The notes under the pieces: generated by a model
Told to the model about the DNA's origin: nothing
The model's database searches: none
What the model saw: only the letters and a program-made list of their open reading frames with translations
Made by a program: the position numbers and the translations under genes
Shown: one piece after another, positions 42,773-56,747 of the stretch
Position numbering within the stretch: position 1 is the stretch's first letter
Layout of the letters: every line of letters begins with the position of its first letter
Source: Pseudomonas syringae
GTDB lineage: Bacteria; Pseudomonadota; Gammaproteobacteria; Pseudomonadales; Pseudomonadaceae
Assembly: GCF_021606685.1 (NCBI RefSeq)
Contig: NZ_WKCB01000001.1
Span: 124,001 to 188,000, forward strand
DNA length: 64,000 nucleotides
Direction of reading: 5' to 3'

Positions 42773-44716
42773 ATGAATATCAAGCAAAAGCTGACCTGGG
42801 CATTTGCGGGCATCGCGTGCCTGCCGGTCATCCTCGTCGCCATCCTGGTCGTATTGAATGTGCGCGAGGGGGCCCTGGCCAATTTCCTCGACAGCAGTGG
42901 CCGCGAGATCCGCCAGATCGACAATGGCATGAAGCAGTTCTTCGATGGCATCAGCCAGAACGTCGACTACGTGGCCAAGGACCCGCGCGTAGTCGCGGCC
43001 AAGGACCTCAAGAACTACGCCGGCGCCGACGCCGCGCAACTCCCGCTGACCCCGACCAATACCGAGCTGCTGGCGATTTTCGACCAGTTCGCCAAGAGCC
43101 ATCCGAGCACCGCCTACCTGTCCCTGGGCTTGAAGGACGGCGGCTACGCCAGTTGGCCGGACGACACCAAACTGAACAATTACGACCCGCGCGTGCGCCC
43201 CTGGTACCAGGCGGCCATCGCCGCGCCCGGTAAAACCGTGCGCACCGGGGCCTACTATTGGGCGCCGGACGATGTGACGCTGATCGGCACCGTGCACACC
43301 GTCGCCGACGCCTCCGGAAATATCCTCGGCGTGGTCGGCCTGGACGTGTCGCTCAAGCAGCTCACCGAACTGGTGCGCAACATCAAGCTGGGCGACAGCG
43401 GCTACCTGATGCTGGTGGAAGGCAACGGCAACGTGCTGGTCGACCCCAGCGATGCCAAGCACAACTTCAAGCCCCTGGCCGACCTGGGCGCCAACTACGC
43501 CGAACTGGCCAAGCGTGGCGACGGCGTCAGCCAGATCGACATCGATGGCGTGGCCTACATGGCCAACATGGTCAGCTCCAAAGACCTCGGCTGGCGCTTT
43601 ATCGGCTTGATCAAACGTGACGAAGTAATGGCAGGCGCCACCAGCCTGACTTGGCTGATCGCCGCCATCGCCGCCGCACTGGCCGTGGTGTTCGCGATTG
43701 TCGGCGCCAGTTTCGCCAGCGTGATCGTGCGCCCGATTCGCGGCGTGGCCGACGGCCTGCAAGAGATTGCCGAAGGTGAAGGCGACCTCACGCGCCAACT
43801 CAAGGTGCAGGGCAAGGATGAAACCGCCAGTCTGGCAGGCTGGTTCAACCAGTTCCTGAGCATGATCGCGCAGTTGGTGCAGCGCATCGGCAACGCGTCG
43901 TCCGACCTGCAAACCGCCGCCGCCGACACCAGCGAAGTCGCCAACAACATGAACCAGGCCGCCGGCCGCCAGCGCGAAGCCGTGGAACTGGTGAGTACCG
44001 CGTTCAACGAAATGGTCGCCACCGCCAACGAAGTCGCGCGCTCCTGCAGCGCTGCCGCCACCAGTGCCGACGAAGGCTACCGCGACGTGCACGACGGCCA
44101 GCAGCACATCGGCGAAGCCACCGGCAGCGTGCTCAAGCTCAGCGAAGACCTGCAAAAGTCGACCCAGACCATGCAGCTGCTGGAGCAGGACAGCAAGAAC
44201 ATCAACACCATCCTCGACACCATCCGCTCAATTGCCGAGCAGACCAACCTGTTGGCGCTCAACGCGGCGATTGAAGCGGCGCGCGCCGGTGACCAGGGCC
44301 GTGGTTTCGCGGTGGTCGCTGACGAAGTCCGCGCGCTGGCCCGCCGTACCGCCGACTCCACCGGCGAAATCGACAGCCTGTTGGGCAACCTCGCCCGCCG
44401 TACCCAGGAAGTCACCCAGCAGATGCAGGGCAGCCTGCAGGTGAGCCACACCAGCGTGGAGCGCATCCAGCAGGCGCGTGACAGCTTCGACAAAATCCGT
44501 GGCTCGGTGGATTCGATCCGCGACCAGAACACCCAGATCGCCACCGCCGCCGAGGAACAGCACCAGGTCGCCGAGGAGATCAACCGCCACATCGCGCAGA
44601 TCCATGCCGATGCGCAACTGGTGGAAGGTTTTGCGCATTCGGCGCAGACCGGCTCTGGGCGCCTGACGGATATTTCGGGTCAGCTCAAGGGGTTGGTGGG
44701 GCGGTTCAAGTTTTAA
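42773..44716 (+). CDS. methyl-accepting chemotaxis protein with dCache sensor
   Basis: A 647-residue chemoreceptor: TM1 at about 8-30, periplasmic double-Cache domain 35-285, TM2 near 290-310, HAMP ([27 protein letters not shown]), and a cytoplasmic signalling domain with the hairpin tip [38 protein letters not shown]. The sensor contains YDPRVRPWY and GVVGLDVSL, which fit the Y-R-W-Y...D pattern described for amino-acid-binding dCache receptors such as PctA. An attractant response to amino acids is therefore plausible. It stands alone and converges with the autotransporter gene 15 bp away. Confidence 0.92.
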
Positions 44717-44731: not shown

Positions 44732-47700
44732 TCACCACGCCAATCGATAGCCGATGTTCAACGCCCACGGGCGCTTTAGCGTCGAGCTGTCACTGGTCTC
44801 GACGTCTGCATAAACGTGCTGACCGCGCGCCAGCGCTCCCGTGACACCCGCCCCTGCATACCAGCCACCGCCGTTGCCGTCCGGGTGGCTGCTGATGTCG
44901 TTGGTCTTGACCTGGCTGCGCGCCGACAGGTCTTGAACCCAGCCCGCCTTGATATACGGCTGGACGGTAGCGCCGTTATCCAACGTCAGCGCCCGGCCCA
45001 ACTGCGCACCACCGCGCAGTTGAGTGGCAATGCCGTCGTCGGCTTCGACGCGCAGGCCGTTACTCAGGCGGTAACGGTCACTGCCGCCGTACAGCGCCGA
45101 CAATTGCACCTGTGGCTCGACGAACCACCCATGCTCCAGGCGCACACGCTTGCCGGTTTCAAATGACACGCCCGCGCCGCTGCTGCGGCTCTTGCCGTTG
45201 ACGCGGTTGCCGTCGGTGGCGTGTACGTCGAAGCGGGTGGACCAGCGATTGAGGGTCAACAGGCTGTCAGCGTACCAACCCGAATCATCCAGGTAAGTGG
45301 CGTAGGTGCCAATGTAGTAGCTGTCGAGCTTGCCGCTGCCTTCGCCGTTGAAGTCACGATTGGCATGGCTGTAGCCCGCCATACCGCCGAGAATCAAAGC
45401 ACCGTGGCTGCGAGCCAATCGGGTATCCAGGCCCAGTTGCATACCGTTGACGTGCTGGGAAAAATGCCGCGCGGCGCCGTTATCCACCTCTTGTTTCTGG
45501 CCGTAGGTGCGCATCCACACGCCCTGGCTGTGGCCGCCGTCGCGCACGTCGCCCAAGCGTTGGATCAGGCTGCCGCGCTCGGCGTCCCAGGTGTCGCGCA
45601 AGGTTGAGAGCGCGCTGCTGTTGATCGCTGCACTGGCGGCAGTAGAGAGATGCTCGTCGACATTGACCAGACTCCACCGCGACTCCCCTGCCGGGTCGTC
45701 GTCGCGCTGCAAGGTGTAGCGGTAGCTGCCGACGTCCACCTGCTGACCGCGATTGGCCAAACTGAAACCGCCCGCGCCGCCCTGGCTTTCGACCAGCGTC
45801 AGGCGTTGGCCGCCGCTGGAGGGTTCGGCACCGCTGTTGCGCACCATGATCTGGTTGTTGCCGGTGACCTGCCCGCCCACTTCCATGCGGTCGCCACGCA
45901 AGGAGCCAAGGTCAGTGTTTATGATGTACCGCCCATCGCCGTCTAGGTCGCCGCCGACTTTCAGGCGCATGAAGTCGCCCCTCGTCGGCTTGGCAAACTC
46001 GACGGTGCCTGTGTTGTTCAGTTGACCTATGCTGGAGTTTGCGAGCATCCGCCAATCGCTGCTGTCGTCCAGGCAGAGACGGGACGCCATGGGGGTATCG
46101 GTTATTGCGCCTTCCAGTCGGGACTGGTTGTGCAGGCTCAATTGCAGGGTGCCGTCATCGACTCGGATATCACCCTCAATCAATGAATGATCGCTGTCCA
46201 GTGCGACTTGGCCGGCGGCGAGGCCATTGCCGCCTGCGGTCATCCAGATAGCGTCGCGACCCGTCAGTCTGCTGTTGGTCAGGTCGGCGCGCAGGCTGCC
46301 GCCGGAGACGCGCAAGGCTGTACTGTTGTGCGCGAGCACAGTGGTGTCGGAGAGGTCTATCTGGTTGGCGACGTCTGTGCTCGCCTGACTGACCAGCCCA
46401 TACGCATTGTCACCGAGAGTCTCAATATGAGTGCCTTGCGCCTTCGCGATGGCGCCGTTGCTGACGAACACCCCGTGGCTAAGGTCGCCGTGGGTCAGTA
46501 CCTGGCTGTCAGTCATCGAAATCTGCGCACCTGGCAACCGGGCGAAGGCGCCCACCGAGCCTTCGCCAAACGTTTCGATCACCACCTTGCGCAGTTCAAA
46601 CGTGGCGTTCGGGCCGCCCACCTGGCCACCGATGACGTCGGTCGAGGCATAGAGCCCATGGGATGAGTCACCATGAGTGACGACACGGCTGCCGTCCATG
46701 CGCAGGGCTCCGGCCCGGTTGTCGATGGCCGCCGCCTGGTTGCCCCAGGTTTCCAGCACGCTGTTGTGCACATCGGCCTGGGTATCGCCGCCGGGCATCC
46801 AGATCGCCGACCCGTTGTTGCCCTGGGCCGTGACATGTGAGTCGTTAAGTTCGAGGGATGCGCCTTTGGCATCAAGGTTAATGCCGTTGCCGGTTTGCGA
46901 GAGCACCTGCGAATGGCTGACCTCTGCCCGACCGCCGCCGAGGGGGGAGCTGGGGCGGATGAGGATCCCGTCCGCCTTGGCGTTGATGCTGCCGTTGCTG
47001 AATTGGAGCAGGCCTTCTTGCATGTCCACGCCTTGGGCCAGATCCGACTGCACCTTCACACCGTCAGCGGTAATGACCGTGTCGGCGCCGGTAATGTTGA
47101 ACACGGCTGCGTATTGGCCGTGAGCGGTGGCGGTGCCATTGCGCAAATCGATATGGGCACCCTGTTGCGCCCTCACGGTAAACGCGGCATTGCCCGCCGA
47201 TGAAAGGCTTGTATCCGTGACGCTGATGCTTGAGCCCGCTCCCATGGCCGACACCGCATCAGCCATAAAACCGGTCGTTGTCACGCTAGAGTCGATCAGC
47301 GCTGCACTCGCGCCCTGATCGACCATAACCCCACGGCCACGGCTGCCATCGGTGGTGATTTCGGTCTGCTCCAGGCGCACATGGGAGCCTTCGCCACTGG
47401 CGCTGGCACCGTCCCCAAAATAGCCGCTGGCGTTAAGTGTCGAGCCTTGCAGCGTGCCCTGCCCGCCGCTCACCACTTGCAGTCCGGTGACGGCATCGTT
47501 GGGCCCTCCGGTCGTGGCACGCACGTCCATGGCTGATCCCATGAACCCGTTCTGCTTGCCACTGACGCGAATGGCGGCGCCCTTGCCGGTATACGCCACC
47601 TGATCATTATCAAGTATCAGTAAATCGCCCTCCTCGGACGACACATCCACTTGGCCGATCGTGGCTGCCTGAGCCGGGTTTAACGTCACCAACAGTGCAC

Positions 47701-47740
47701 AACCAATTGCATAACCGAGTGGGTTCTTTTTGATGCTCAT
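44732..47740 (-). CDS. pertactin-type autotransporter, adhesin-like
   Basis: A 1002-residue type Va secreted protein. The signal peptide ends at LNPAQA-A; the passenger (about 30-720) is a repetitive right-handed beta-helix rich in short Ser/Thr/Asp/Gly repeats such as SxVxTHGDxSHGxxxS. The C-terminal translocator (about 750-1002) starts near GVWMRTYGQKQEVDNG and ends in IGYRLAW with the required terminal aromatic. I see no catalytic triad, so an adhesin or aggregation role is likelier than an enzyme. It is 109 bp after the fimbrial tip gene on the same strand, which links it to surface attachment. Confidence 0.88.
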   Translation of the reverse strand: MSIKKNPLGYAIGCALLVTLNPAQAATIGQVDVSSEEGDLLILDNDQVAYTGKGAAIRVSGKQNGFMGSAMDVRATTGGPNDAVTGLQVVSGGQGTLQGSTLNASGYFGDGASASGEGSHVRLEQTEITTDGSRGRGVMVDQGASAALIDSSVTTTGFMADAVSAMGAGSSISVTDTSLSSAGNAAFTVRAQQGAHIDLRNGTATAHGQYAAVFNITGADTVITADGVKVQSDLAQGVDMQEGLLQFSNGSINAKADGILIRPSSPLGGGRAEVSHSQVLSQTGNGINLDAKGASLELNDSHVTAQGNNGSAIWMPGGDTQADVHNSVLETWGNQAAAIDNRAGALRMDGSRVVTHGDSSHGLYASTDVIGGQVGGPNATFELRKVVIETFGEGSVGAFARLPGAQISMTDSQVLTHGDLSHGVFVSNGAIAKAQGTHIETLGDNAYGLVSQASTDVANQIDLSDTTVLAHNSTALRVSGGSLRADLTNSRLTGRDAIWMTAGGNGLAAGQVALDSDHSLIEGDIRVDDGTLQLSLHNQSRLEGAITDTPMASRLCLDDSSDWRMLANSSIGQLNNTGTVEFAKPTRGDFMRLKVGGDLDGDGRYIINTDLGSLRGDRMEVGGQVTGNNQIMVRNSGAEPSSGGQRLTLVESQGGAGGFSLANRGQQVDVGSYRYTLQRDDDPAGESRWSLVNVDEHLSTAASAAINSSALSTLRDTWDAERGSLIQRLGDVRDGGHSQGVWMRTYGQKQEVDNGAARHFSQHVNGMQLGLDTRLARSHGALILGGMAGYSHANRDFNGEGSGKLDSYYIGTYATYLDDSGWYADSLLTLNRWSTRFDVHATDGNRVNGKSRSSGAGVSFETGKRVRLEHGWFVEPQVQLSALYGGSDRYRLSNGLRVEADDGIATQLRGGAQLGRALTLDNGATVQPYIKAGWVQDLSARSQVKTNDISSHPDGNGGGWYAGAGVTGALARGQHVYADVETSDSSTLKRPWALNIGYRLAW

Positions 47741-47849
47741 TCATCAATTCCTTGAAGTGAGTTGTTATCCAATGCCCAAACGTTCAGCAACAGGTAACCC
47801 CACCACGCTCTTCAAAAGAGGCAGTTGTGCTGAAGTTTCGAGACCGCTG

Positions 47850-48884
47850 TTATTGATATTTCACGGTGACCGTTGCGGTACCTTTTACGAGCCCTGGGGA
47901 GACGCAGTGGCTGCCCCCGGCACTTTGGTAATAACGCACCCGATATGGCAGGCTGAAGCTGGTGGCGTTATTGACGACCGCCCCCACCACGCTGGTTGCG
48001 CCCAATAACGCGGGCACCCCGGTGTTGGCATCGAGCACTTGTAGCGCAACGCATGACGCGTAGTTGTCCCCGGCCTGGGGCTTGATCAAGCCCAGGCTGC
48101 CATCGGGCATGAACCTGTCTGCATCCATCGTCAGGGTGACGGCGCCATTGGCGCCGGAGCAGTTGAAGCCCACGGTGAAGGGCGTTTCGCCGGTGGTGGA
48201 GCCCAGGCCGTTAAAGCGTCCAAAGGGCACGGGAGCCAGGTCCACGTTGAGATCGCCAATCGAACAGGTGCCGGTTTCTGGCACGATTTCACCGCCGCCA
48301 CCGGCAATGCGCGTGGTCATGAACACCCCGCTGTTGAACGGGTAGACCGGTTGCGCGATGTTGTTGGTATAGGTACCGCCCGCCAATGCACCGGAACCGA
48401 CTGGCTCACTGAGCTTGATCAGTTCAACGATCACCGACCCCGTCACACTGACCACCGCGCTGTTCTGCTCGATGGAACCACTGACGTTGGGCATGCCTAA
48501 CGTCCAGCTGGTGCTGTCACCGGCGTAAAACGGTGAAGTGGCCCTTGTCGGTACCCAACTGGTGCGCATGCCCACCCCGGCAATATTGGTGGTGTAGACA
48601 TTAGCGATAGAAGTCGCGGTGCCTTGAACCACCCGCCATTGGGTGGTATCTCCCGGTTTGCAGGACACGATCGCGTAATAGCTGCCGGTAATCGGGAACT
48701 CCTGGGTGAAGAACACTTCGCCTATCGCCGTGCCTGAAGGCACGGTGACGCGACCGAAGTTCATATCCACCACGGCACCCTCCTGGTAGTTGGGCATCAT
48801 GCCGCACACCGCGAAGGCGGACGTTGGAACCAGCAGCAACGCAAGCAGTTGCAACGTTATGGAAATCAATCGGGTCATGTTCAT
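47850..48884 (-). CDS. fimbrial tip adhesin/minor subunit
   Basis: A 344-residue exported protein with signal peptide MNMTRLISITLQLLALLLVPTSAFA. It has two halves: an N-terminal lectin-like part (CGMMPNYQEGAVVDMNFGRV...) and a C-terminal pilin domain starting near ETGTCSIGDLNVDLAPVPFGRFN and ending PGLVKGTATVTVKYQ, the subunit donor-strand pattern. Two-domain proteins of this size cap chaperone-usher fimbriae and bind receptors. The start overlaps the usher stop (ATGA at 48881-48884). It is the last gene of the fimbrial operon. Confidence 0.85.
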   Translation of the reverse strand: MNMTRLISITLQLLALLLVPTSAFAVCGMMPNYQEGAVVDMNFGRVTVPSGTAIGEVFFTQEFPITGSYYAIVSCKPGDTTQWRVVQGTATSIANVYTTNIAGVGMRTSWVPTRATSPFYAGDSTSWTLGMPNVSGSIEQNSAVVSVTGSVIVELIKLSEPVGSGALAGGTYTNNIAQPVYPFNSGVFMTTRIAGGGGEIVPETGTCSIGDLNVDLAPVPFGRFNGLGSTTGETPFTVGFNCSGANGAVTLTMDADRFMPDGSLGLIKPQAGDNYASCVALQVLDANTGVPALLGATSVVGAVVNNATSFSLPYRVRYYQSAGGSHCVSPGLVKGTATVTVKYQ

Positions 48885-51478
48885 CGACTGCTCAGGCGAG
48901 TGCCTTCTCGAAGCAGGCACGGCGCCTGGGTCTGCGACAGGCCCTTGATACCGGCACTGGGTTTGGCGAAGCGGTAGGCGACGCTGCAACGGGCATCGCC
49001 CGGCAGGCTGACGGTCAGCGCGCCGTCGTTTGCGACGCCCTGCACAAACAGGTTGTTACCCTGGCCGACCACGCCGACCACATTGCCCGCATCATCGAGC
49101 ACCTGCGCACCAAACGGCATGTTCAGGCTGGCGGCGTTGGTGATGTGAATGACCGCCGACTGCCCGACCTTGGTTTCAAAGTTGACGCGCACCACTGCAC
49201 CGGCAAACGGCGCGACCTGTTGGGTGGTGTTTTGGAAGGTGACATCCATCGAGCTGCCTTTGGGGTCCAGGTTGACGTTGTTCATGCGGTAGGGCGACAG
49301 GTACGGCACCACGCCATAACCGTTTTTATCGATGACCAGGCCAGACAACCCACCAATGCTCGCGCCCTCGCCGCCCGGCGCAGACACGAGGGCAATGGTG
49401 TCGCCGGTGTTGGGTGACAGCGTCAGCCCACCGCTGTGCACCACCAGGCTGCCGTCACTGCCCAGGGAGGTGGACTTGTAATCGCCGCCCTGTTCGTAGG
49501 CGCCGCGCACCGTGCTGCGGTTGCCCCGGTATTGGGCATTGACGCTGCCGGAGCTGGACGTATTGGTGTCGGTGGCCTGGGTAATGCCGTAGCTCAGGCG
49601 CCCGGCATCGTCCGCTACACCGCTCAAATAGTTACGCAACGAGCTGCCCTGCCCGTGCCCACCGGTGTATTGGCTGCTAAGGGTTGGCGACTTGGCACCG
49701 CTGCCCAGTGGAATATTGAGGCTCACGAAGTACTGGGTCTGTGCCCCCAGGAATTCATCGTTATTGCGGCTGGCGGAAACGCTGTAGCTGATATCTCCCG
49801 CATTGCCGTTGAACCCCACTTCGAACTGGCGGCTGGAAGCCCCCGAACCGCCCCAGGTCTTGCGGGTGCTGCCAGTCATGAAAAACGAGCCCAGGGTGCC
49901 CACCGGCTGGTCGACACTGATGTCGAACCGGTCACGTTCGTTGCCCATCCACAGCCACTGCTCCTGATAGCCAGCAGTCTTGACGCGTTCACGCGCGTCG
50001 ACTGCCTGGGACAGGGTCATGTACCTGGACGATGAATAGCGGTAGGCCGCGAGGGTGAAATTGGTACGGGACTCGCTCAGCAACTTGCTGTACGCGACCT
50101 TGACGCTACGCCCGGATGCCGAGCCGAGACGGCCACCCAACTGCGTGGTTTCTTGCGTCAGGTCAACCGACAAAGCCCCCAGTGGCGTGTTCATCCCGAG
50201 CCCCATCAGCCCTGCGCGGAACCCCTCACTGACCTGAAAGCCGCCATAGCCGGTCAGGTAATTATTCAATCCATAGAACAAAGTGCCTTGGGCCAGATGG
50301 GCATTGTCGGCCAGGTTCTGGTTGTACAGCCGCCCCGCCACCAGGTCGTATTTGGCACGTCCTGGCCGCACCAGGTTGGTGATCGACGAATACGGCACAT
50401 CGAAACGGCGTTCGCTGCCATCGGCCTCGGTGACCCGCACATTAAGGTCGCCGCCGTAACCTGTGGGGTACAGGTCATCGATCACGAAATTTCCGGGAGT
50501 GACCGTGGTCTGGTAAATCTTTATATCGTTCTGCCACACCTCGACCCGTGCGTTGCTGCGGGCAAAACTGCGAATAGTGGGGGCAAAGCCAATCTGCGAG
50601 TCGGGGAACATGCGTTCCTCCGACGCCAGGCTCAGCCCACGCACGGCGATACTGTCAAACCCCACGCCCTTGGTATTGAGCTCGCCCAGGGTCGCCAGGC
50701 TTTTCAATTGCGCCACCGGCCGCTGCACGTAGGTAGACAGGCGGTTCCACTCGGTCTTGGCGCCGTTGGTCCAGCTGACGTTCGCATTGTGTCGAAACTG
50801 CCACAAGCCCAGGTTGAAACCGCTGCGCAGGCCCATATAGGCGGAGTCAGTGCTGCCGTAATGGTCATTCTGAGTGCTGAAGTAGTTCAGGTTGTAGTCC
50901 ACCTTTGCCGCCGTGATACCGGCGTCCCAATACTCCGGCTCCACGTAGCCACGGGGGATACGCCGCAGGCTGGCCTGGGGTATTTGCAGGTAGAGCTTCT
51001 GCTCGCCCAAGTCGGCGTAAGCCACAGAATCGGGCATGAGCGCCTTGAGCGTGCGGCAACCGTTGAACGTCGGCAATTGCTGGGTATCAATGCCCAGGCG
51101 TTTGAGGGCCGCAGCGCTGAAACACGCCTCGGCGATATTGCGGTCTGAGCCGTCGACAAATTCAACTCGGGTTCGCGTCACTTGTTTGCCATTGATGTAA
51201 ACGTTGAGGTCGTAACGCCCGGCCAACACCGGGTTGCCTTTCTGGTAACGCGAAACGTCCATGCGCTTGGCGTTGCCCACCAGGAACGACGGGGTGAATT
51301 CGGCGTCCTGAAAGTCCACTTGGGCAGCGGCTGCCGGTAGCGACAGCTCATCGGCCATCAGGTGCTCATCGGCGCCACTGAACATCAGGCACACCACTGC
51401 CCAGAATCGAACGATTGAGCATGACGGTCCCGCCAGAAACACTTTTCTGCGAAGTATCGATCGATCAAAACGGTTCAT
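48881..51478 (-). CDS. fimbrial outer-membrane usher protein
   Basis: An 865-residue FimD/PapC-type usher. The N-terminal chaperone-binding domain (FQDAEFTPSFLVGNAKRMDVSRYQKGNPVLAGRYDLNVYINGKQV), the barrel signature ERMFPDSQIGFAPTIRSFARSNARVEVWQNDIKIYQTTVTPGNFVIDDLYPTGYGGDLNVRVTEADGSE region and the C-terminal domains are all present. It assembles and secretes fimbriae through the outer membrane. It is 27 bp after the chaperone gene and overlaps the tip gene. The barrel segment is described here by position: roughly residues 290-355. Confidence 0.94.
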   Translation of the reverse strand: MNRFDRSILRRKVFLAGPSCSIVRFWAVVCLMFSGADEHLMADELSLPAAAAQVDFQDAEFTPSFLVGNAKRMDVSRYQKGNPVLAGRYDLNVYINGKQVTRTRVEFVDGSDRNIAEACFSAAALKRLGIDTQQLPTFNGCRTLKALMPDSVAYADLGEQKLYLQIPQASLRRIPRGYVEPEYWDAGITAAKVDYNLNYFSTQNDHYGSTDSAYMGLRSGFNLGLWQFRHNANVSWTNGAKTEWNRLSTYVQRPVAQLKSLATLGELNTKGVGFDSIAVRGLSLASEERMFPDSQIGFAPTIRSFARSNARVEVWQNDIKIYQTTVTPGNFVIDDLYPTGYGGDLNVRVTEADGSERRFDVPYSSITNLVRPGRAKYDLVAGRLYNQNLADNAHLAQGTLFYGLNNYLTGYGGFQVSEGFRAGLMGLGMNTPLGALSVDLTQETTQLGGRLGSASGRSVKVAYSKLLSESRTNFTLAAYRYSSSRYMTLSQAVDARERVKTAGYQEQWLWMGNERDRFDISVDQPVGTLGSFFMTGSTRKTWGGSGASSRQFEVGFNGNAGDISYSVSASRNNDEFLGAQTQYFVSLNIPLGSGAKSPTLSSQYTGGHGQGSSLRNYLSGVADDAGRLSYGITQATDTNTSSSGSVNAQYRGNRSTVRGAYEQGGDYKSTSLGSDGSLVVHSGGLTLSPNTGDTIALVSAPGGEGASIGGLSGLVIDKNGYGVVPYLSPYRMNNVNLDPKGSSMDVTFQNTTQQVAPFAGAVVRVNFETKVGQSAVIHITNAASLNMPFGAQVLDDAGNVVGVVGQGNNLFVQGVANDGALTVSLPGDARCSVAYRFAKPSAGIKGLSQTQAPCLLREGTRLSSR

Positions 51479-51505
51479 AGGCTTCTAACGATGGAGGTAA
51501 TTAAC

Positions 51506-52246
51506 TTAATCGACCGCCGAGCTGACTGTTTTCAATGCGCCATAGTCATTGATGTAATCAAACTGGACTTCGCCGTCTTTAACAGGCAATACCGGTGCGG
51601 TGTCGGCCTGTACGTCGAACGTCTGCTGGCCGCCAGGAGCAACCATATAAATACCGTCTTTATTGCTAAACACCTTGCCTGCTCGCGCGACATAGACACT
51701 GCCGAAAGAAATATAGAGACCCGAAGTATTACGGCTGTGCAATACCCACTTGCCACCCTTATTGAGTAACTTCCACTTCAAGTGTTTAGCTGCATCGTGC
51801 AACGGCATACTGAGTTTCGCGGGACGATAAAAAACCTTGATGCGACTCTGGATCGCTACCAGCAAGTTGTTCTTATCCTTGGACCCCGGCGTAACCGGCG
51901 GTATTTCAAGTACATTCAGCCAAAACAACGATTCGCGATCTTCCGGCAATGCCGTGCCGTTGTAGAGGATTCGCAACGTCTGGGACGCCTGACCCTCAAT
52001 ACGGGTAATCGGTGGCATGATCAAAAACGGTGCGGTGCTGTTCTCCGGCGTGGAGTCCGTAGCCCCATCGTCCATCCAGGACTGCACAAGTGCCGGCGTT
52101 GCGCCTTTATTCGACAGAGGCAGCGTCACTTCACGCTCGCCGCCAGGATAAATAAGCCGGGTGCCCCCCAGCACGATGTTGGCCCGGGCATCGATGCTCA
52201 TCAGGTAAATGAGCAGGCCACCAATCAATAGACGAAATATCCGCAT
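51506..52246 (-). CDS. periplasmic fimbrial chaperone (PapD family)
   Basis: A 246-residue chaperone with signal peptide (MRIFRLLIGGLLIYLMSIDARA-N). The Ig-like domain starts IVLGGTRLIYPGGEREVTLPLSNKG, and the conserved subunit-binding and hydrophobic strand (FLIMPPITRIEGQASQTLRILYNG, with ESLFWLNVLEIPP) match PapD/FimC. It binds fimbrial subunits by donor-strand complementation and delivers them to the usher. It lies between the major subunit (47 bp) and usher (27 bp) genes. Its sequence looks visibly more AT-rich than the metabolic genes around the window. Confidence 0.94.
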   Translation of the reverse strand: MRIFRLLIGGLLIYLMSIDARANIVLGGTRLIYPGGEREVTLPLSNKGATPALVQSWMDDGATDSTPENSTAPFLIMPPITRIEGQASQTLRILYNGTALPEDRESLFWLNVLEIPPVTPGSKDKNNLLVAIQSRIKVFYRPAKLSMPLHDAAKHLKWKLLNKGGKWVLHSRNTSGLYISFGSVYVARAGKVFSNKDGIYMVAPGGQQTFDVQADTAPVLPVKDGEVQFDYINDYGALKTVSSAVD

Positions 52247-52293
52247 AGTCAGGGTAATACCCTCTGCGCAGCGGGCTGCGCAGAGGGTATTTC

Positions 52294-52851
52294 TCAGTTA
52301 TAGCTCAGTTGGTATTTGACCTGGCTCTTGACCAGGCCTGCGGTGGCTACGCCGGTCGCGTAGTACTGCACGCCGTAAACCATCTCGGCTGCGCTGTTGG
52401 CGACGGTAAAGCTCTTGGCTGCACCGGCATCACCTGGCTTGATGACGCTGTTGTCTTCGCTGTTGTACAGCTGCAAGCCCACATTGGCGGCGGACGTCGC
52501 GCCGCTGAGCTGGTTCTTGAGCAGGCCCGTGCTCAAATCGACGAGGCTGGCGTCGTAGAGAAACTGCGCACGCACATTGGTCACCGTCGGCGAGCACTGG
52601 TTGACGGCAATGCGGAAATTGGACGGCATGGCGGTTGCGCCGGCCTGAGCCAGGTCACCGACTTTGGCGGTGGCCAGGTCCACGGTGAAGTCGCCTGCAG
52701 TGCCGGTGGTAACCTGGCATGTTTCGTCAGTCACTTTGCCGTTGAATGTAATGGTGCCCGCCTCAGCCGCACCGGCGTTATTGGACAACGTCAACAATCC
52801 AAAAAGACTCAAGACAGCCGCATTCATTGGCAGCACAAATTGTTTTTTCAT
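52294..52851 (-). CDS. major fimbrial subunit (type 1 pilin)
   Basis: A 185-residue pilin with a signal peptide ending LSNNAGA-AEAG. The mature domain starts GTITFNGKVTDETCQVTTGTAG, with the paired cysteines (ETCQ and VNQCSP) that form the pilin disulfide, and ends VKYQLSYN with the penultimate tyrosine recognised by chaperones. It polymerises into the fimbrial rod. It is the first gene of the operon subunit-chaperone-usher-tip. Upstream lies a 368-bp region that separates it from the response regulator gene. Confidence 0.93.
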   Translation of the reverse strand: MKKQFVLPMNAAVLSLFGLLTLSNNAGAAEAGTITFNGKVTDETCQVTTGTAGDFTVDLATAKVGDLAQAGATAMPSNFRIAVNQCSPTVTNVRAQFLYDASLVDLSTGLLKNQLSGATSAANVGLQLYNSEDNSVIKPGDAGAAKSFTVANSAAEMVYGVQYYATGVATAGLVKSQVKYQLSYN

Positions 52852-53190
52852 ACTTCATCTCTCAATAGTTAACGGGCACGCTGAAACATCAGCATCAGTA
52901 GGACATTCACGCATCACAGGGTCGCACTGAATAAGTGAGTGACTTATCAGAACTGCTTAGATAACGACTTAGTCATTTTTCGGGCACGCGTCGACCTCGG
53001 CACTTACGTGCGCACACCCTCAAATCAATAAGTTGCCTGATAAGGCGAGACGCGCTGGTACGTCTAGCATTAAGCACTACCAAACTAAGTAATACTGAGC
53101 GCTAACACCTAAGCGTTACTTGGCTGACGCTGTGGCCGCTATTATGCGTAAGCCGCCGATGACTGTCTTTAGGATCAAACTGAAAATACA

Positions 53191-53214
53191 GCCACGGCGA
53201 CTAAAAACCGTGGC
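53191..53214 (-). terminator. possible terminator after the response regulator gene
   Basis: GCCACGG and CCGTGGC form a 7-bp stem with a 10-base loop 5 bp after the regulator stop; on the minus strand a weak T-rich stretch (TGTATTTTC) follows. The rest of the 52852-53219 spacer is AT-rich and holds no ORF I trust; promoter elements for the fimbrial operon must lie there. Confidence 0.5.
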
Positions 53215-53219
53215 CGTCA

Positions 53220-53858
53220 TTACATAAACAACTGGGCTTCAGCGCAAAAAGCCAATAGCGCTTGATCATTATCAACACCGAGCTTGTGCATGGCTGACAC
53301 TTTTTGCGCGCTGATGGTCTTGGTGCTTCTATGCAGCAGTGCCGCAATCTCACGCCCACTCAAGCCAGAGATGAAATGGCGCAAAACCTCGTACTCACGC
53401 ACCGTCAATCGGGCGATCCGAGCGTGGAGCTGGTTATCGACGGTCGGAAGCGCCCGCGCCGGGGCCTGGTACTTCCGGTCTCGGGACAAGGCCTGCAACG
53501 CCAGGTTGATTTCATTGAAGTCGCCGCTTTTCGGAATCACGCCCCATACGCCCAGGTCGTAGAGGCTACCGACGATCAGCGGGTTGGAAAGCATGGTGAA
53601 TACTAGCACCCGGGTGTCGCTGAACCGTCGGCACAGGTACTCGATCATCTGCAACCCGTCGCCATAGGTTTCATCACCGGGCATGCTGTAGTCGGCAATG
53701 ACCACGTTCGGCGCCAACTGTTGATGCAACTGGATCAATTGACTGGGGCCGCTGGCGACACCGACCACCTCGAACCGCGCATCGCGTTCGATGATGTCCT
53801 GTACGGCCATCGCGACAATCGGATGATCGTCGGCGATTAACACGGTGGTTTTTTTCAT
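53220..53858 (-). CDS. NarL/RcsB-like response regulator
   Basis: A 212-residue response regulator. The receiver domain has the acidic pair Asp10-Asp11, the phospho-acceptor Asp in VVIADYSMPGDE and the Lys in IPKSGD. The LuxR-type helix-turn-helix is at 145-205 (LTVREYEVLRHFISGLSGREIAALLHRSTKTISAQKVSAMHKLGV). The GDETYGDG insertion and QKxxAMxKLG recognition helix resemble RcsB/FimZ/BvgA, which control fimbriae and capsule. It is 48 bp downstream of the hybrid kinase and just upstream of the fimbrial operon, so it is the probable output of that kinase. Confidence 0.9.
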   Translation of the reverse strand: MKKTTVLIADDHPIVAMAVQDIIERDARFEVVGVASGPSQLIQLHQQLAPNVVIADYSMPGDETYGDGLQMIEYLCRRFSDTRVLVFTMLSNPLIVGSLYDLGVWGVIPKSGDFNEINLALQALSRDRKYQAPARALPTVDNQLHARIARLTVREYEVLRHFISGLSGREIAALLHRSTKTISAQKVSAMHKLGVDNDQALLAFCAEAQLFM

Positions 53859-53906
53859 GGTGATTCATTCCAGTTTCAGTCAGTGAATAACGGATGGCCT
53901 GCGGTT

Positions 53907-56747
53907 TCAAAGGTCCGCCAGCAGGCCCTCGACAGCGACGACAAGGGCTGCGAACTCTGTGGACGTTCCGTGTCCTGCCAATAGGCGCTGCTCCAATGCC
54001 TGGCACAGCTGCCCGAGCTGTTTGGCCTGCACCGCCGCGAATGCACCCCGCAACCGATGCAATAGCTCCACGACGACGGGGGCCTGGCGCTGCTCCCGGG
54101 CTTGGTGCAGCGCGTGCATATCGGCGCGCAGGGTCTTCACGAACAGCTCGCGCATTCTGGGGGAGAGCGCGATGGGATCAGTGGCGGCTTTCAGTTCCAG
54201 TGGTTGCCCGCAGCGCGCGTAGCGCCGCAGCACCGCATACAAATCCCGTAGGCTCACCGGTTTAATCAACCAGTTCTCAATGCCGGCCGCGATGAACTGC
54301 TGGGTCTCCTCCTGCATGCCGCTCGCGGTGACTGCGATGACTGGGAGGCTGGCGCCGCGCCGACGCAGTTCATACACCAGTTCAAAGCCATCCATCTGCG
54401 GCATGTTGATATCGGTCAGCAGCGCATCGAACGCTGGCGTCCAGTGCGCCAGGGCTTCCCGGCCATCGCTTGCCAGGGTCACTCGGCAGCCGAGTTGCTC
54501 AAGCTGTTCCTTGAGCAATTGCTGGTTGATGGGGTTGTCTTCGGCCACCAACAGGTTCAAGCCCAACTTGCCTGGTCGCTGGGCCTGTGCGGCTGGCGGG
54601 GCGATCGGCGCATCGCCCTGTGCCAACGCAAGGCCGACGCTCAACGTGAAACAGCTGCCCACGCCGATGTCGCTGGCAACGGTCAACCGGCCACCCATCA
54701 GTTGGGCAAGTTGCGCGCAGATCGACAGGCCCAGGCCGGTGCCGGCAACGGTGTGGGCATGCCGATGCGCCTGGTAGAACGGTTCGAACAGATGGGCCTG
54801 CTGGTCGGCCGCGATGCCCATGCCGGTGTCTGTGACCTGCCAGTGAAGGGTCGCCAAGCCGTTGCAGACCTCAGCGGTCAAGTGCAACGTTACACTGCCC
54901 TGCTCGGTGAACTTGAGCGCGTTGCAGAGCAGGTTGGTGAGTATCTGCCGAATACGCCGCGCATCTCCCAGCACCACACCCGGCACGTCACCATCGACGT
55001 CCACCGCCAACTGCAACTGCTTGCCCTGGGCGGTACCGATGTACTCGGCGACCACGTCATCGGCCAGCGCCAGCGGGCAGAATTCGGCCGGCTCCAGCAC
55101 CATCTCCCCGGCTTCGATCTTGGACACGTCCAGCACATCGCTGACCAACTGTAATAGCGTGGTGGAGGAACGCTCGATGATATGCAGGTAGTTACTTTGC
55201 TGGTCGGTCAGCTCGGTGAGCCCCAGCAACTCCAGAGTACCGAGGGCACCATACAGGGGCGTTCGGATCTCATGGCTGATTGTTGCCAGGAAGCGCGATT
55301 TGGCCGCACTGGCTTGCGCCAGTCGCTGCTCGACTTCCTTGTGCGCGCTGATGTCGTTGAACGCACAGAGCACCACCTCTTCACCGCGATAGCGCGCAGA
55401 AGCGAAACTTCCGTGCAGCGTGTTGCCATAGCGGCTTTGGAAGATCACGTCACCATCGGGCTGGGCCGGGTCGGGGTTGAGCCGCCAGTGTTCGCTCAAC
55501 TGAGTAATGGCCTGGGTATCCCCCAGCAAGCGTTCGGCCAGCGGGTTTTGCATGATCAGGTGACGGTCGTCGCGCCTCAATACACACAGTGCCACAGGAG
55601 CGGTCTGGATCACCGTGCGACTGAAGGTATCGCTTTCGACGATCTCCAGATGTGCCTGGCGTGCCGGCGAAATAACTTTGCGCGAGTACCCGCGGATGGC
55701 TGCCCAACTGCCCAAAAGGCTGGCGAGCAGCAAGCCCGCGCCGCCGAGTAACTGCCACTTGGCGTAGCCGAAAAAGCCTTGATAGGTCAGTTCATATAAC
55801 GCGACCCAACCGCCGGTGTCGGCGCCTCCCATCTTGAATACCAGCCCCTGGGCAGAGAAGTTCAGGCCTGACCGGTAGCCGTCCACCGAACCGACCGTGT
55901 CAATCAACGAGTCACCCCGGGGCGACAGCAATTGCAAGCGGTCATAGATCGGGCGCTCGAACAGTTGCTCAGGGTCGTTGATACGCTCCAGGTCCAACAT
56001 CGTCACGGCGATGATCTGCCGTTTTGGCGTCCACCAGAGCGCGTCAGGCAGTTTGAACGCCAAGTACCCGAGCAGTGCTCGGGATTCATCGGCAATGTAG
56101 TGCTGCGCCGGCGCCCAACGCACACCGTCTTCTTGGCCAGCTGGTGCTTGGGTTTGCAACGCGACGTGAATCCTCTCGACCGTCGCCAGGTAGTTGTCCT
56201 GGGTCAGCAACCGGCGCCCCGCAAACCGGCCGACTGCCGGAACGGCCATGCTGGTTTTACCCAGTGCCCCGAGCACGAACACTTGGGGTGACGGGTAGAT
56301 CGAGGTACTCCAGAAGTGGCTGTAGAAATCCGCCAGGATCACCCCCAGCACGAAATTGCCCGGGTGCGGGCCTGTGGTGCCCTGCCGTTGCGCCAGGGTG
56401 AAGGGCATCGACGACGCAAACTGAGCGCCCTCGAAAATGCGCACGCCCGGCTCATCGATCAGCACGTGATGTTGCGCGGTGATGCCCGACGCCGGTGGCT
56501 GCTGCGCGGCCTGGTTGCCGTGTCGCGCAACCCGCGTAATGAAGTCTTCGTGCTGACGGATGTCGCCAATCAGTCGGTTGAAATGAAGCCTCACCTTATT
56601 GCGCTCTTCACCTACCACTTTGCTCAACGCCCAATAGCAGGCGGCCAGCATCAGCAGGTTAAGGAAGATCGCACAGATCAACACCTTGTTCAGGCGCAGG
56701 GAGGTGTTGGCGAGATGGCGGATCAGGCTGTAGTTGTGTTCGGGCAT
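53907..56747 (-). CDS. hybrid sensor histidine kinase with receiver and Hpt domains
   Basis: A 946-residue unorthodox kinase. TM1 lies at about 20-42, a 300-residue periplasmic sensor follows, then TM2 (LLGGAGLLLASLLGSWAAI), a PAS-like segment, HisKA (SRFLATISHEIRTPLYG), HATPase (NLLCNALKFTEQG, DTGMGIA), a receiver (VAEDNPINQQLL...TDINMPQMDG) and a C-terminal Hpt with HRLRGAFA. This layout is that of RcsC/BvgS/RocS1-type phosphorelays controlling fimbriae and biofilm. It would pass phosphate to the RcsB-like regulator encoded next. ATG 56747 is preferred. The signal is unknown. Confidence 0.92.
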   Translation of the reverse strand: MPEHNYSLIRHLANTSLRLNKVLICAIFLNLLMLAACYWALSKVVGEERNKVRLHFNRLIGDIRQHEDFITRVARHGNQAAQQPPASGITAQHHVLIDEPGVRIFEGAQFASSMPFTLAQRQGTTGPHPGNFVLGVILADFYSHFWSTSIYPSPQVFVLGALGKTSMAVPAVGRFAGRRLLTQDNYLATVERIHVALQTQAPAGQEDGVRWAPAQHYIADESRALLGYLAFKLPDALWWTPKRQIIAVTMLDLERINDPEQLFERPIYDRLQLLSPRGDSLIDTVGSVDGYRSGLNFSAQGLVFKMGGADTGGWVALYELTYQGFFGYAKWQLLGGAGLLLASLLGSWAAIRGYSRKVISPARQAHLEIVESDTFSRTVIQTAPVALCVLRRDDRHLIMQNPLAERLLGDTQAITQLSEHWRLNPDPAQPDGDVIFQSRYGNTLHGSFASARYRGEEVVLCAFNDISAHKEVEQRLAQASAAKSRFLATISHEIRTPLYGALGTLELLGLTELTDQQSNYLHIIERSSTTLLQLVSDVLDVSKIEAGEMVLEPAEFCPLALADDVVAEYIGTAQGKQLQLAVDVDGDVPGVVLGDARRIRQILTNLLCNALKFTEQGSVTLHLTAEVCNGLATLHWQVTDTGMGIAADQQAHLFEPFYQAHRHAHTVAGTGLGLSICAQLAQLMGGRLTVASDIGVGSCFTLSVGLALAQGDAPIAPPAAQAQRPGKLGLNLLVAEDNPINQQLLKEQLEQLGCRVTLASDGREALAHWTPAFDALLTDINMPQMDGFELVYELRRRGASLPVIAVTASGMQEETQQFIAAGIENWLIKPVSLRDLYAVLRRYARCGQPLELKAATDPIALSPRMRELFVKTLRADMHALHQAREQRQAPVVVELLHRLRGAFAAVQAKQLGQLCQALEQRLLAGHGTSTEFAALVVAVEGLLADL

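What the first reader, a model, noticed from the sequence alone, without database searches (positions are those of the whole stretch)
44732..56747. Single locus joining fimbriae, an autotransporter and a phosphorelay
A hybrid kinase with Hpt, an RcsB-like regulator, a four-gene chaperone-usher operon and an adhesin-like autotransporter are consecutive on one strand over 12 kb. The layout recalls RocS1/RocA1 and cup fimbriae of P. aeruginosa, but here the kinase and regulator are next to the structural genes and an autotransporter is added. The 300-residue periplasmic sensor matches no domain I recognise.
Basis: partly seen in the sequence, partly recalled or inferred. Interest (0 to 1): 0.5.

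Follow-up and report, generated by a model that had tools for sequence, protein, structure and literature searches.

The report
Fimbria and autotransporter under one phosphorelay
A Pseudomonas gene cluster carries its own signalling pair next to genes for a sticky surface fibre and a second surface adhesin; the fibre-plus-signal arrangement is already known from P. aeruginosa cupD, but the added adhesin, and DNA sites that seem to recur in front of both kinds of adhesin, look like a new variant worth testing.

Summary
In detail: seven consecutive minus-strand genes at 44732-56747 encode an unorthodox kinase (sensor-HisKA-HATPase-REC-Hpt), an RcsB-like regulator, pilin, chaperone, usher, MrkD-like tip adhesin and a pertactin-type autotransporter (AT). 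The implied novelty of kinase and regulator beside fimbrial genes is wrong: P. aeruginosa cupD/rcsCB/pvrRS has it. The 291-residue sensor has no Pfam or PDB match but occurs in 109 of 398 genomes of the genus; 106 of 124 neighbourhoods carry chaperone or usher genes and 106 a PvrR-like REC-EAL frame. The window locus is a cupD-like variant without pvrSR.
The AT is the interesting part. Close relatives were found in 9 genomes; in 8 they adjoin this kinase family, in two layouts. An RcsB-type box (TTMAGWWWNWTCYTAA) occurs once in the window's genome, abutting a promoter-like site before the pilin gene. The pattern also precedes the five divergent ATs (used to build it), three other AT frames and one pilin gene; 14 of 19 further sites are unexplained. 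In two relatives another motif matches exactly only at the pilin and AT promoters, in one of them 3.1 Mb apart. In the window itself AT control is inferred (read-through). No experiment was done. Verdict: new variant of a known kind.

The parts
53907..56747 (-). Unorthodox sensor kinase, 946 aa: TM - periplasmic domain - TM - PAS-like (sub-threshold) - HisKA - HATPase - REC - Hpt; lacks ~110 aa between HATPase and REC that E. coli RcsC and the L120/L121 relatives have
55752..56624 (-). 291-residue periplasmic sensor domain; no Pfam/PDB match; found in 109 of 398 genomes of the genus
53220..53858 (-). RcsB-like response regulator (REC + LuxR-type HTH)
53188..53217 (-). Terminator-like stem behind the regulator gene
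   Evidence: consensus match; 7 found against 11.5 in shuffles of the whole region, so weak alone
53169..53184 (-). RcsB-type box TTCAGTTTGATCCTAA, the only exact match to TTMAGWWWNWTCYTAA in this genome; conserved in L007 with one difference
53141..53169 (-). Promoter-like AAGACA-17-CATAAT whose first base is the last base of the box; both hexamers conserved in L007
   Evidence: 3 promoter-like sites found against 4.2 in shuffles, so weak alone
52294..52851 (-). Major pilin, Fimbrial family
51506..52246 (-). PapD-type periplasmic chaperone
48881..51478 (-). Outer membrane usher
47850..48884 (-). Two-domain tip adhesin, MrkD-like receptor-binding domain + Fimbrial; start overlaps the usher stop by 4 bp
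47741..47849 (-). 109-bp gap between tip adhesin and AT; no terminator-like or promoter-like site found
44732..47740 (-). Pertactin-type autotransporter, 1002 aa; beta-helix passenger, no enzymatic domain matched

Best explanation
The locus is a self-contained, cupD-like adhesion module. The membrane kinase senses an unknown periplasmic or envelope signal with a fimbria-linked sensor domain and passes phosphate H492 -> D779 -> H897 -> the regulator's receiver (inferred from domain order and the PA14 RcsCB precedent). The phosphorylated RcsB-like regulator binds the box at 53169-53184, which abuts a -35-like element, and activates the pilin-chaperone-usher-adhesin operon. The AT is most likely expressed with it by read-through across a 109-bp gap without a terminator-like site, giving a long-reach fimbria and a short-reach surface adhesin together. 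The locus has no pvrSR genes, so the c-di-GMP phosphodiesterase branch of cupD is missing there. The AT is a recurrent, movable output of this kinase family.
For: Gene order, domains and acceptor motifs. Kinase family beside chaperone or usher genes in 106 of 124 neighbourhoods against about 2% by my own chance estimate. Close AT relatives in 9 genomes, 8 beside this kinase family, in two layouts; on a quick tree of 122 kinases the AT label needs 3 changes, 3 forced by supported branches. Box: exactly one exact match in each of G000, G140, G051 and G286, just behind the regulator gene (these sites shaped the pattern). The pattern lies upstream of the divergent AT in 5 of 5 loci (also used to build it). 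Of 19 further sites in six genomes, 5 (at four genes) lie just upstream of an AT or pilin frame against 0.03 expected at random. In G051 and G286, GCGGCNNTTTNTMAAAGAC matches exactly only at the pilin and AT promoters from which it was read; pilin/AT upstream similarity in those two genomes was reached by 0, 2, 0 and 0 of 500 shuffles, four comparisons that are not independent. Published: RcsB activates cupD in PA14 and GAA at -78 to -76 of the cupD1 promoter is needed (PMC2696094, PMC3842833, passages).
Against: No expression or binding data. In the window and in L007 the upstream regions of pilin and AT share nothing beyond chance (216 and 303 of 500 shuffles), so AT control there rests on read-through; nor does the window's pilin region resemble those of L118 or L119 (499 and 129 of 500). 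Fourteen of 19 further box sites are not near a detected AT or pilin frame, and G244, the next relative, has no match. Among 124 neighbourhoods only the nine loci behind the pattern and L212 carry it; simple RcsB cores are not enriched. In the divergent loci the boxes could serve pvrS instead. The classic RcsAB box is absent from the window. In PA14 RcsC acts as phosphatase with PvrS as kinase (PMC3842833, passages), so the sign of the signal here is open. At the G286 locus chaperone and tip-adhesin genes were not found, so fimbria and AT need not work together.
Confidence: 0.66

Rival explanations
1. The phosphorelay controls only the fimbrial operon, as in cupD; the AT is a neighbour with its own, unrelated control.
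For: No shared pilin/AT motif in the window or L007; in the sample the AT sits behind the fimbrial genes in only 3 neighbourhoods and lies elsewhere in G051; the L118 and L247 ATs share a leader of roughly 130 bp (by eye).
Against: 8 of 9 close AT relatives adjoin this kinase family in two layouts; pilin and AT promoters share a motif in G051 and G286; box upstream of divergent and of other ATs.
Confidence: 0.23
2. Fimbriae and AT are both controlled mainly by something else (for example c-di-GMP or an AraC-type regulator), and the kinase/regulator pair acts elsewhere.
For: G051 carries an AraC-family gene between regulator and pilin genes (scanned in L008), and G286 a similar one (by eye); the shared pilin/AT motif there differs from the box; cupD is also under PvrR (PMC2696094, passages).
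Against: No such gene lies in the 368-bp gap of the window or at L007; the only exact box in the genome abuts a promoter-like site before the pilin gene.
Confidence: 0.09
3. Decayed or silent cluster kept by chance.
For: The related G286 locus lacks chaperone and tip-adhesin genes.
Against: All seven window frames are open and conserved at L117, the same locus as L007, with 68-85% identity for the seven queries matched there.
Confidence: 0.02

Closest known systems
P. aeruginosa PA14 cupD1-5 / rcsC-rcsB / pvrR-pvrS (PAPI-1)
   Same: Unorthodox kinase with Hpt, adjacent RcsB-like regulator, pilin-chaperone-usher-adhesin; similar position of the first histidine (PA14 H502, window H492)
   Different: Window lacks pvrS, pvrR and a second chaperone (cupD5), has a shorter kinase (Hpt histidine 897 against 1029) and carries an autotransporter. 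Whether PA14 RcsC has this sensor domain was not tested
Roc (RocS1/RocA1/RocA3), cupB/cupC, CupB5 and LepBA
   Same: Phosphorelay controlling cup fimbriae and a large secreted protein; rocA3 lies next to cupB
   Different: RocS1 senses with SBP_bac_3 domains and is encoded in its own roc1 locus (distance from the cup genes recalled, not checked); CupB5 is exported by LepB, whereas the window AT carries its own barrel
E. coli Rcs (RcsC/RcsD/RcsB)
   Same: RcsB-like regulator; kinase aligns to the RcsC model from about residue 362 on
   Different: Below both NCBIfam cut-offs; Hpt fused in the kinase (on RcsD in E. coli, recalled); the HATPase-REC linker region is missing; sensor similarity to RcsC not above shuffled controls
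Providencia plasmid kinase (NZ_CP145926.1)
   Same: Same sensor family (hhalign probability 99.95), next to a chaperone-usher operon
   Different: 24% identity, Enterobacterales, plasmid-borne; no autotransporter annotated in the 25 kb read (the gene table there is incomplete)

Membership tests
CupD-type (rcsCB/pvrSR-cup) locus | Unorthodox RcsC-like kinase adjacent to an RcsB-like regulator and a chaperone-usher operon | tested here: met
CupD-type (rcsCB/pvrSR-cup) locus | pvrS and pvrR (REC-EAL) at the locus | tested here: not met
   not found at L116 (window); at the second own locus L141 PvrR passes the NF052596 cut-off
CupD-type (rcsCB/pvrSR-cup) locus | Second chaperone (cupD5) | tested here: not met
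   one chaperone found
CupD-type (rcsCB/pvrSR-cup) locus | RcsB box in the pilin promoter | tested here: inconclusive
   box-like site at 53169-53184; classic RcsAB box absent
Roc1 system | SBP_bac_3 periplasmic sensors on the kinase | tested here: not met
Enterobacterial RcsC/RcsB | NCBIfam equivalog cut-offs | tested here: not met
   regulator 154 of 235 bits, kinase 378 of 920 bits
Enterobacterial RcsC/RcsB | RcsC periplasmic domain | tested here: inconclusive
   hhalign E 0.34 over 130 collinear columns, score within the range of 8 shuffles and a reversal
Classical (type Va) autotransporter | Passenger plus C-terminal PF03797 barrel in one chain | tested here: met
Classical (type Va) autotransporter | Secretion and surface display | not testable with these tools
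   needs experiment
CupB5/TPS adhesin | Exported by a separate partner barrel (LepB) | tested here: not met
   own barrel

The most novel reading that the evidence does not exclude
RcsB-type phosphorelays of Pseudomonas with this uncharacterised periplasmic domain form a dedicated adhesin-control family whose regulator, in some lineages, recognises one box type in front of two unrelated kinds of surface adhesin, chaperone-usher fimbriae and pertactin-type autotransporters, so that the output can be fimbria, autotransporter or both, and stays coupled even when the autotransporter gene has moved megabases away.
Probability: 0.38. Interest if true: 0.62.

Novelty: new variant of a known kind. Interest (0 to 1): 0.45.

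Why it matters
It adds specific, testable promoter sites to a proximity argument, and suggests that how far a cell reaches to hold a surface (fimbria or autotransporter) may be set by one relay. It also points to a widespread, mostly fimbria-linked sensor domain (109 of 398 genomes of the genus; two Providencia plasmid records) without a Pfam family or a PDB sequence match, whose signal is unknown.

Tried and rejected
Structure of the sensor: AlphaFold2 with window + L007 + L008 gave mean pLDDT 31; no fold search was run on it. Homology to E. coli RcsC's periplasmic domain: hhalign no better than shuffled sequences, so not claimed. Classic RcsAB box TAAGAATATTCCTA (consensus recalled): 0 matches in the window with up to 3 mismatches. 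RcsB cores AGAATATTC and GAATATTC are not enriched over reversed controls in the 124 loci (10 against 17, 32 against 44); looser cores that resemble the box are (AGAANNTTCYTA 14 against 3), mostly through the five divergent-AT loci. The window-type box with up to 3 mismatches gives one more site, in G286 (C1:2607185), and one reversed-control match there. Folding of the adhesin-AT gap: unremarkable (z -0.42). Direct pilin/AT motif in the window: chance level (11 comparisons in all; window pilin against L118 AT reached by 14 of 500, on a different stretch). Neighbourhoods of the other AT relatives could not be fetched. An earlier count said 126 sensor rows; one search lists 125, of which I used 124 (a second fragment of G358 was dropped). 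The AT survey scored at most two candidates per genome and its list was cut, so 9 genomes is a lower bound. Two of the 124 loci gave no kinase row for the tree (a quick tree with a long-branch warning). Literature on Pseudomonas RcsB with autotransporters or cupD relatives: searches (7 of 7 listed; 12 of 87 listed; 12 of 23 listed), titles and abstract starts only; I saw none describing this combination, which is not proof of absence.

Full report
Observation. The window lies in a 5.9-Mb genome (G000) of Pseudomonas, judged from its named relatives. Seven open minus-strand genes run from kinase (56747) to autotransporter (44732) with gaps of 48 bp (kinase-regulator), 368 bp (regulator-pilin), 47 and 27 bp and a 4-bp overlap inside the fimbrial operon, and 109 bp before the autotransporter. 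Pfam supports every gene. A terminator-like stem follows the regulator gene; none was found between tip adhesin and autotransporter (a weak scan). So the likely units are kinase-regulator and pilin-chaperone-usher-adhesin-(autotransporter); this is inference.

The sensor. The 291-residue periplasmic domain matches no Pfam family even at E 10 and no PDB sequence alone (E<=1) or as a 40-member profile (E<=5); the 40 members scanned singly gave three families, each in one member and with E of 0.029 or worse. It is nevertheless common: 109 of 398 genomes of the genus, with five invariant columns among the 40 members of A1. I took 124 of the 125 listed matches with up to 9.5 kb on each side. Chaperone or usher genes lie in 106 of 124 neighbourhoods, an RcsB-like regulator in 115, a PvrR-like REC-EAL frame in 106, a PvrS-like kinase in 101 and an autotransporter related to the window's in 8. 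Two of the 18 without fimbrial genes are short contigs (L192, L200). With 3 to 10 usher matches per genome in the seven genomes counted, chance would put one that close in roughly 2% of cases (my estimate). Pfam confirmed the REC-EAL protein in 4 of 4 frames scanned (L121, L141, L155, L233); at L141, the second such locus of the window's own genome, it passes the PvrR cut-off (647 over 580 bits). A Providencia plasmid carries the same sensor family beside a fimbrial operon. The fold remains unknown.

What kind of system. This resembles the cupD arrangement. In PA14 cupD1-5 lie with rcsC, rcsB, pvrR and pvrS; RcsB activates, PvrR counteracts, RcsC behaves as phosphatase and relay with PvrS as kinase, and GAA at -78 to -76 of the cupD1 promoter is essential (PMC2696094 and PMC3842833, passages read). 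The window locus departs from it: no pvrSR, one chaperone, a kinase short of about 110 residues between HATPase and REC (67 against 177-179 residues between the same two motifs in L120, L121 and E. coli RcsC), and an autotransporter.

The autotransporter. Close relatives (best segment 54% identity or more) were found in nine of 398 genomes (at most two candidates scored per genome). The next by score are a second G271 copy (43% over 434-1002) and one at 32%. Eight of nine sit beside a kinase of this sensor family: three behind the fimbrial genes (window, L117, L118) and five divergent from a pvrS-like kinase at loci without detected fimbrial genes (L233, L236-L239). The ninth, in G051, lies behind an aminotransferase gene, while the G051 kinase locus keeps its fimbrial genes (L119). 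The five divergent autotransporters are 55-58% identical to the window's over the C-terminal part and 43-44% over the N-terminal part; their sensors are only 25-29% identical to the window's. On the quick tree of 122 kinases the label needs three changes, three forced by supported branches (long-branch warning). Recruitment more than once is the simplest reading. At L118 chaperone and tip-adhesin genes were not found while pilin, usher and autotransporter remain.

Regulatory sites. Window and L007 share a block behind the regulator gene, TTCAGTTTGATCYTAA running into AAGACA-17-CATAAT. The five divergent loci share two palindromes about 108 and 82 bp before the autotransporter start, TTMAGAAWATTCTTAA and a TTAAGAAGATTCTCAT type. 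One pattern, TTMAGWWWNWTCYTAA, was written to cover the window-type sites and the first palindrome. It has exactly one exact match in each of G000, G140, G051 and G286, each just behind the regulator gene: before the pilin gene in the first two, before an AraC-family gene in G051 (scanned in L008) and a similar gene in G286. G244 has no match. In six further genomes (five with divergent autotransporters, and G368) it has 24 distinct sites; five were used to build it, and of the other 19 five lie just upstream of an autotransporter or pilin frame (two before one pilin of G368; one each before other autotransporter frames of G376, G353 and G061) against 0.03 expected at random. Fourteen of 19 do not, including a perfect palindrome TTAAGATATATCTTAA seen once each in four genomes, and a site in G376 before a short autotransporter frame that my rule did not count. 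The reversed pattern has no match in 10 of 11 genomes and one in G051. Most fimbrial loci in the set do not carry this exact box: of 124 neighbourhoods only the nine loci behind the pattern and L212 do.

A second motif ties autotransporter and fimbria more directly. Upstream regions of the pilin and autotransporter genes of G051, 3.1 Mb apart, share 26 of 31 aligned positions (score 34, 0 of 500 shuffles); the three other cross-comparisons with G286 gave 2, 0 and 0 of 500, but these are not independent because the two genomes are related. GCGGCNNTTTNTMAAAGAC, read from those four sites, has no other exact match in either genome, none in G000 or G140, and none reversed. In the window and L007 no such pilin/AT similarity exists (216 and 303 of 500), so there co-expression is inferred from the missing terminator.

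Mechanism. Shown by sequence: gene content, acceptor motifs, sites and their distribution. Inferred: phosphate flow, binding of the regulator to the box, activation at a promoter whose -35 it abuts, and read-through into the autotransporter. The signal is unknown.

Novelty. Adjacency of relay and fimbriae is already known (cupD; also rocA3 beside cupB, PMC12051241 section 2.1). A second exported protein under a fimbrial relay has a precedent in CupB5/LepBA under Roc (PMC12051241, section 2.3). New here, as far as I could see, are the classical autotransporter at a cupD-like locus, its repeated association with this kinase family, and the shared sites. The listings (partly capped) showed no paper describing it.

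Noticed in passing
L120:11388-19859 (G244): Directly upstream of the regulator and kinase genes, same strand, lies a 2823-aa protein with RTX repeats and an animal-haem-peroxidase domain, and no fimbrial genes were detected in the 19.9 kb held: possibly a third kind of output.
   Followed up: partly
L118:2269-5851 (G286): Chaperone and tip-adhesin genes were not found while pilin, usher and autotransporter remain.
   Followed up: partly
L008:13453-14391 (same place as L119) and the corresponding gap of L118: An AraC-family gene lies between regulator and pilin genes (Pfam in L008, by eye in L118) but not in the window or L007; the box precedes it, suggesting a cascade.
   Followed up: partly
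L204:4583-8299; similar gene order at L206, L211, L213: At L204 a kinase with SBP_bac_3 sensors, PAS and Hpt (RocS1-like domain set) lies beside the kinase with this sensor domain and fimbrial genes; the kinases of L206, L211 and L213 were not scanned.
   Followed up: no
L141 (G000:C154:22718-42593): The window's genome has a second locus of pvrSR-rcsCB type with a fimbrial operon.
   Followed up: partly
G073:C9:192410, G353:C1:1195972, G376:C15:1473, G061:C1:5475313: A perfect palindrome TTAAGATATATCTTAA once per genome, target unknown.
   Followed up: no
NZ_CP145926.1 70855-74067: Providencia plasmid with a fimbrial operon and a kinase of this sensor family.
   Followed up: partly
window 42773-44716: A dCache/HAMP/MCPsignal chemoreceptor gene is convergent with the autotransporter gene.
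   Followed up: no
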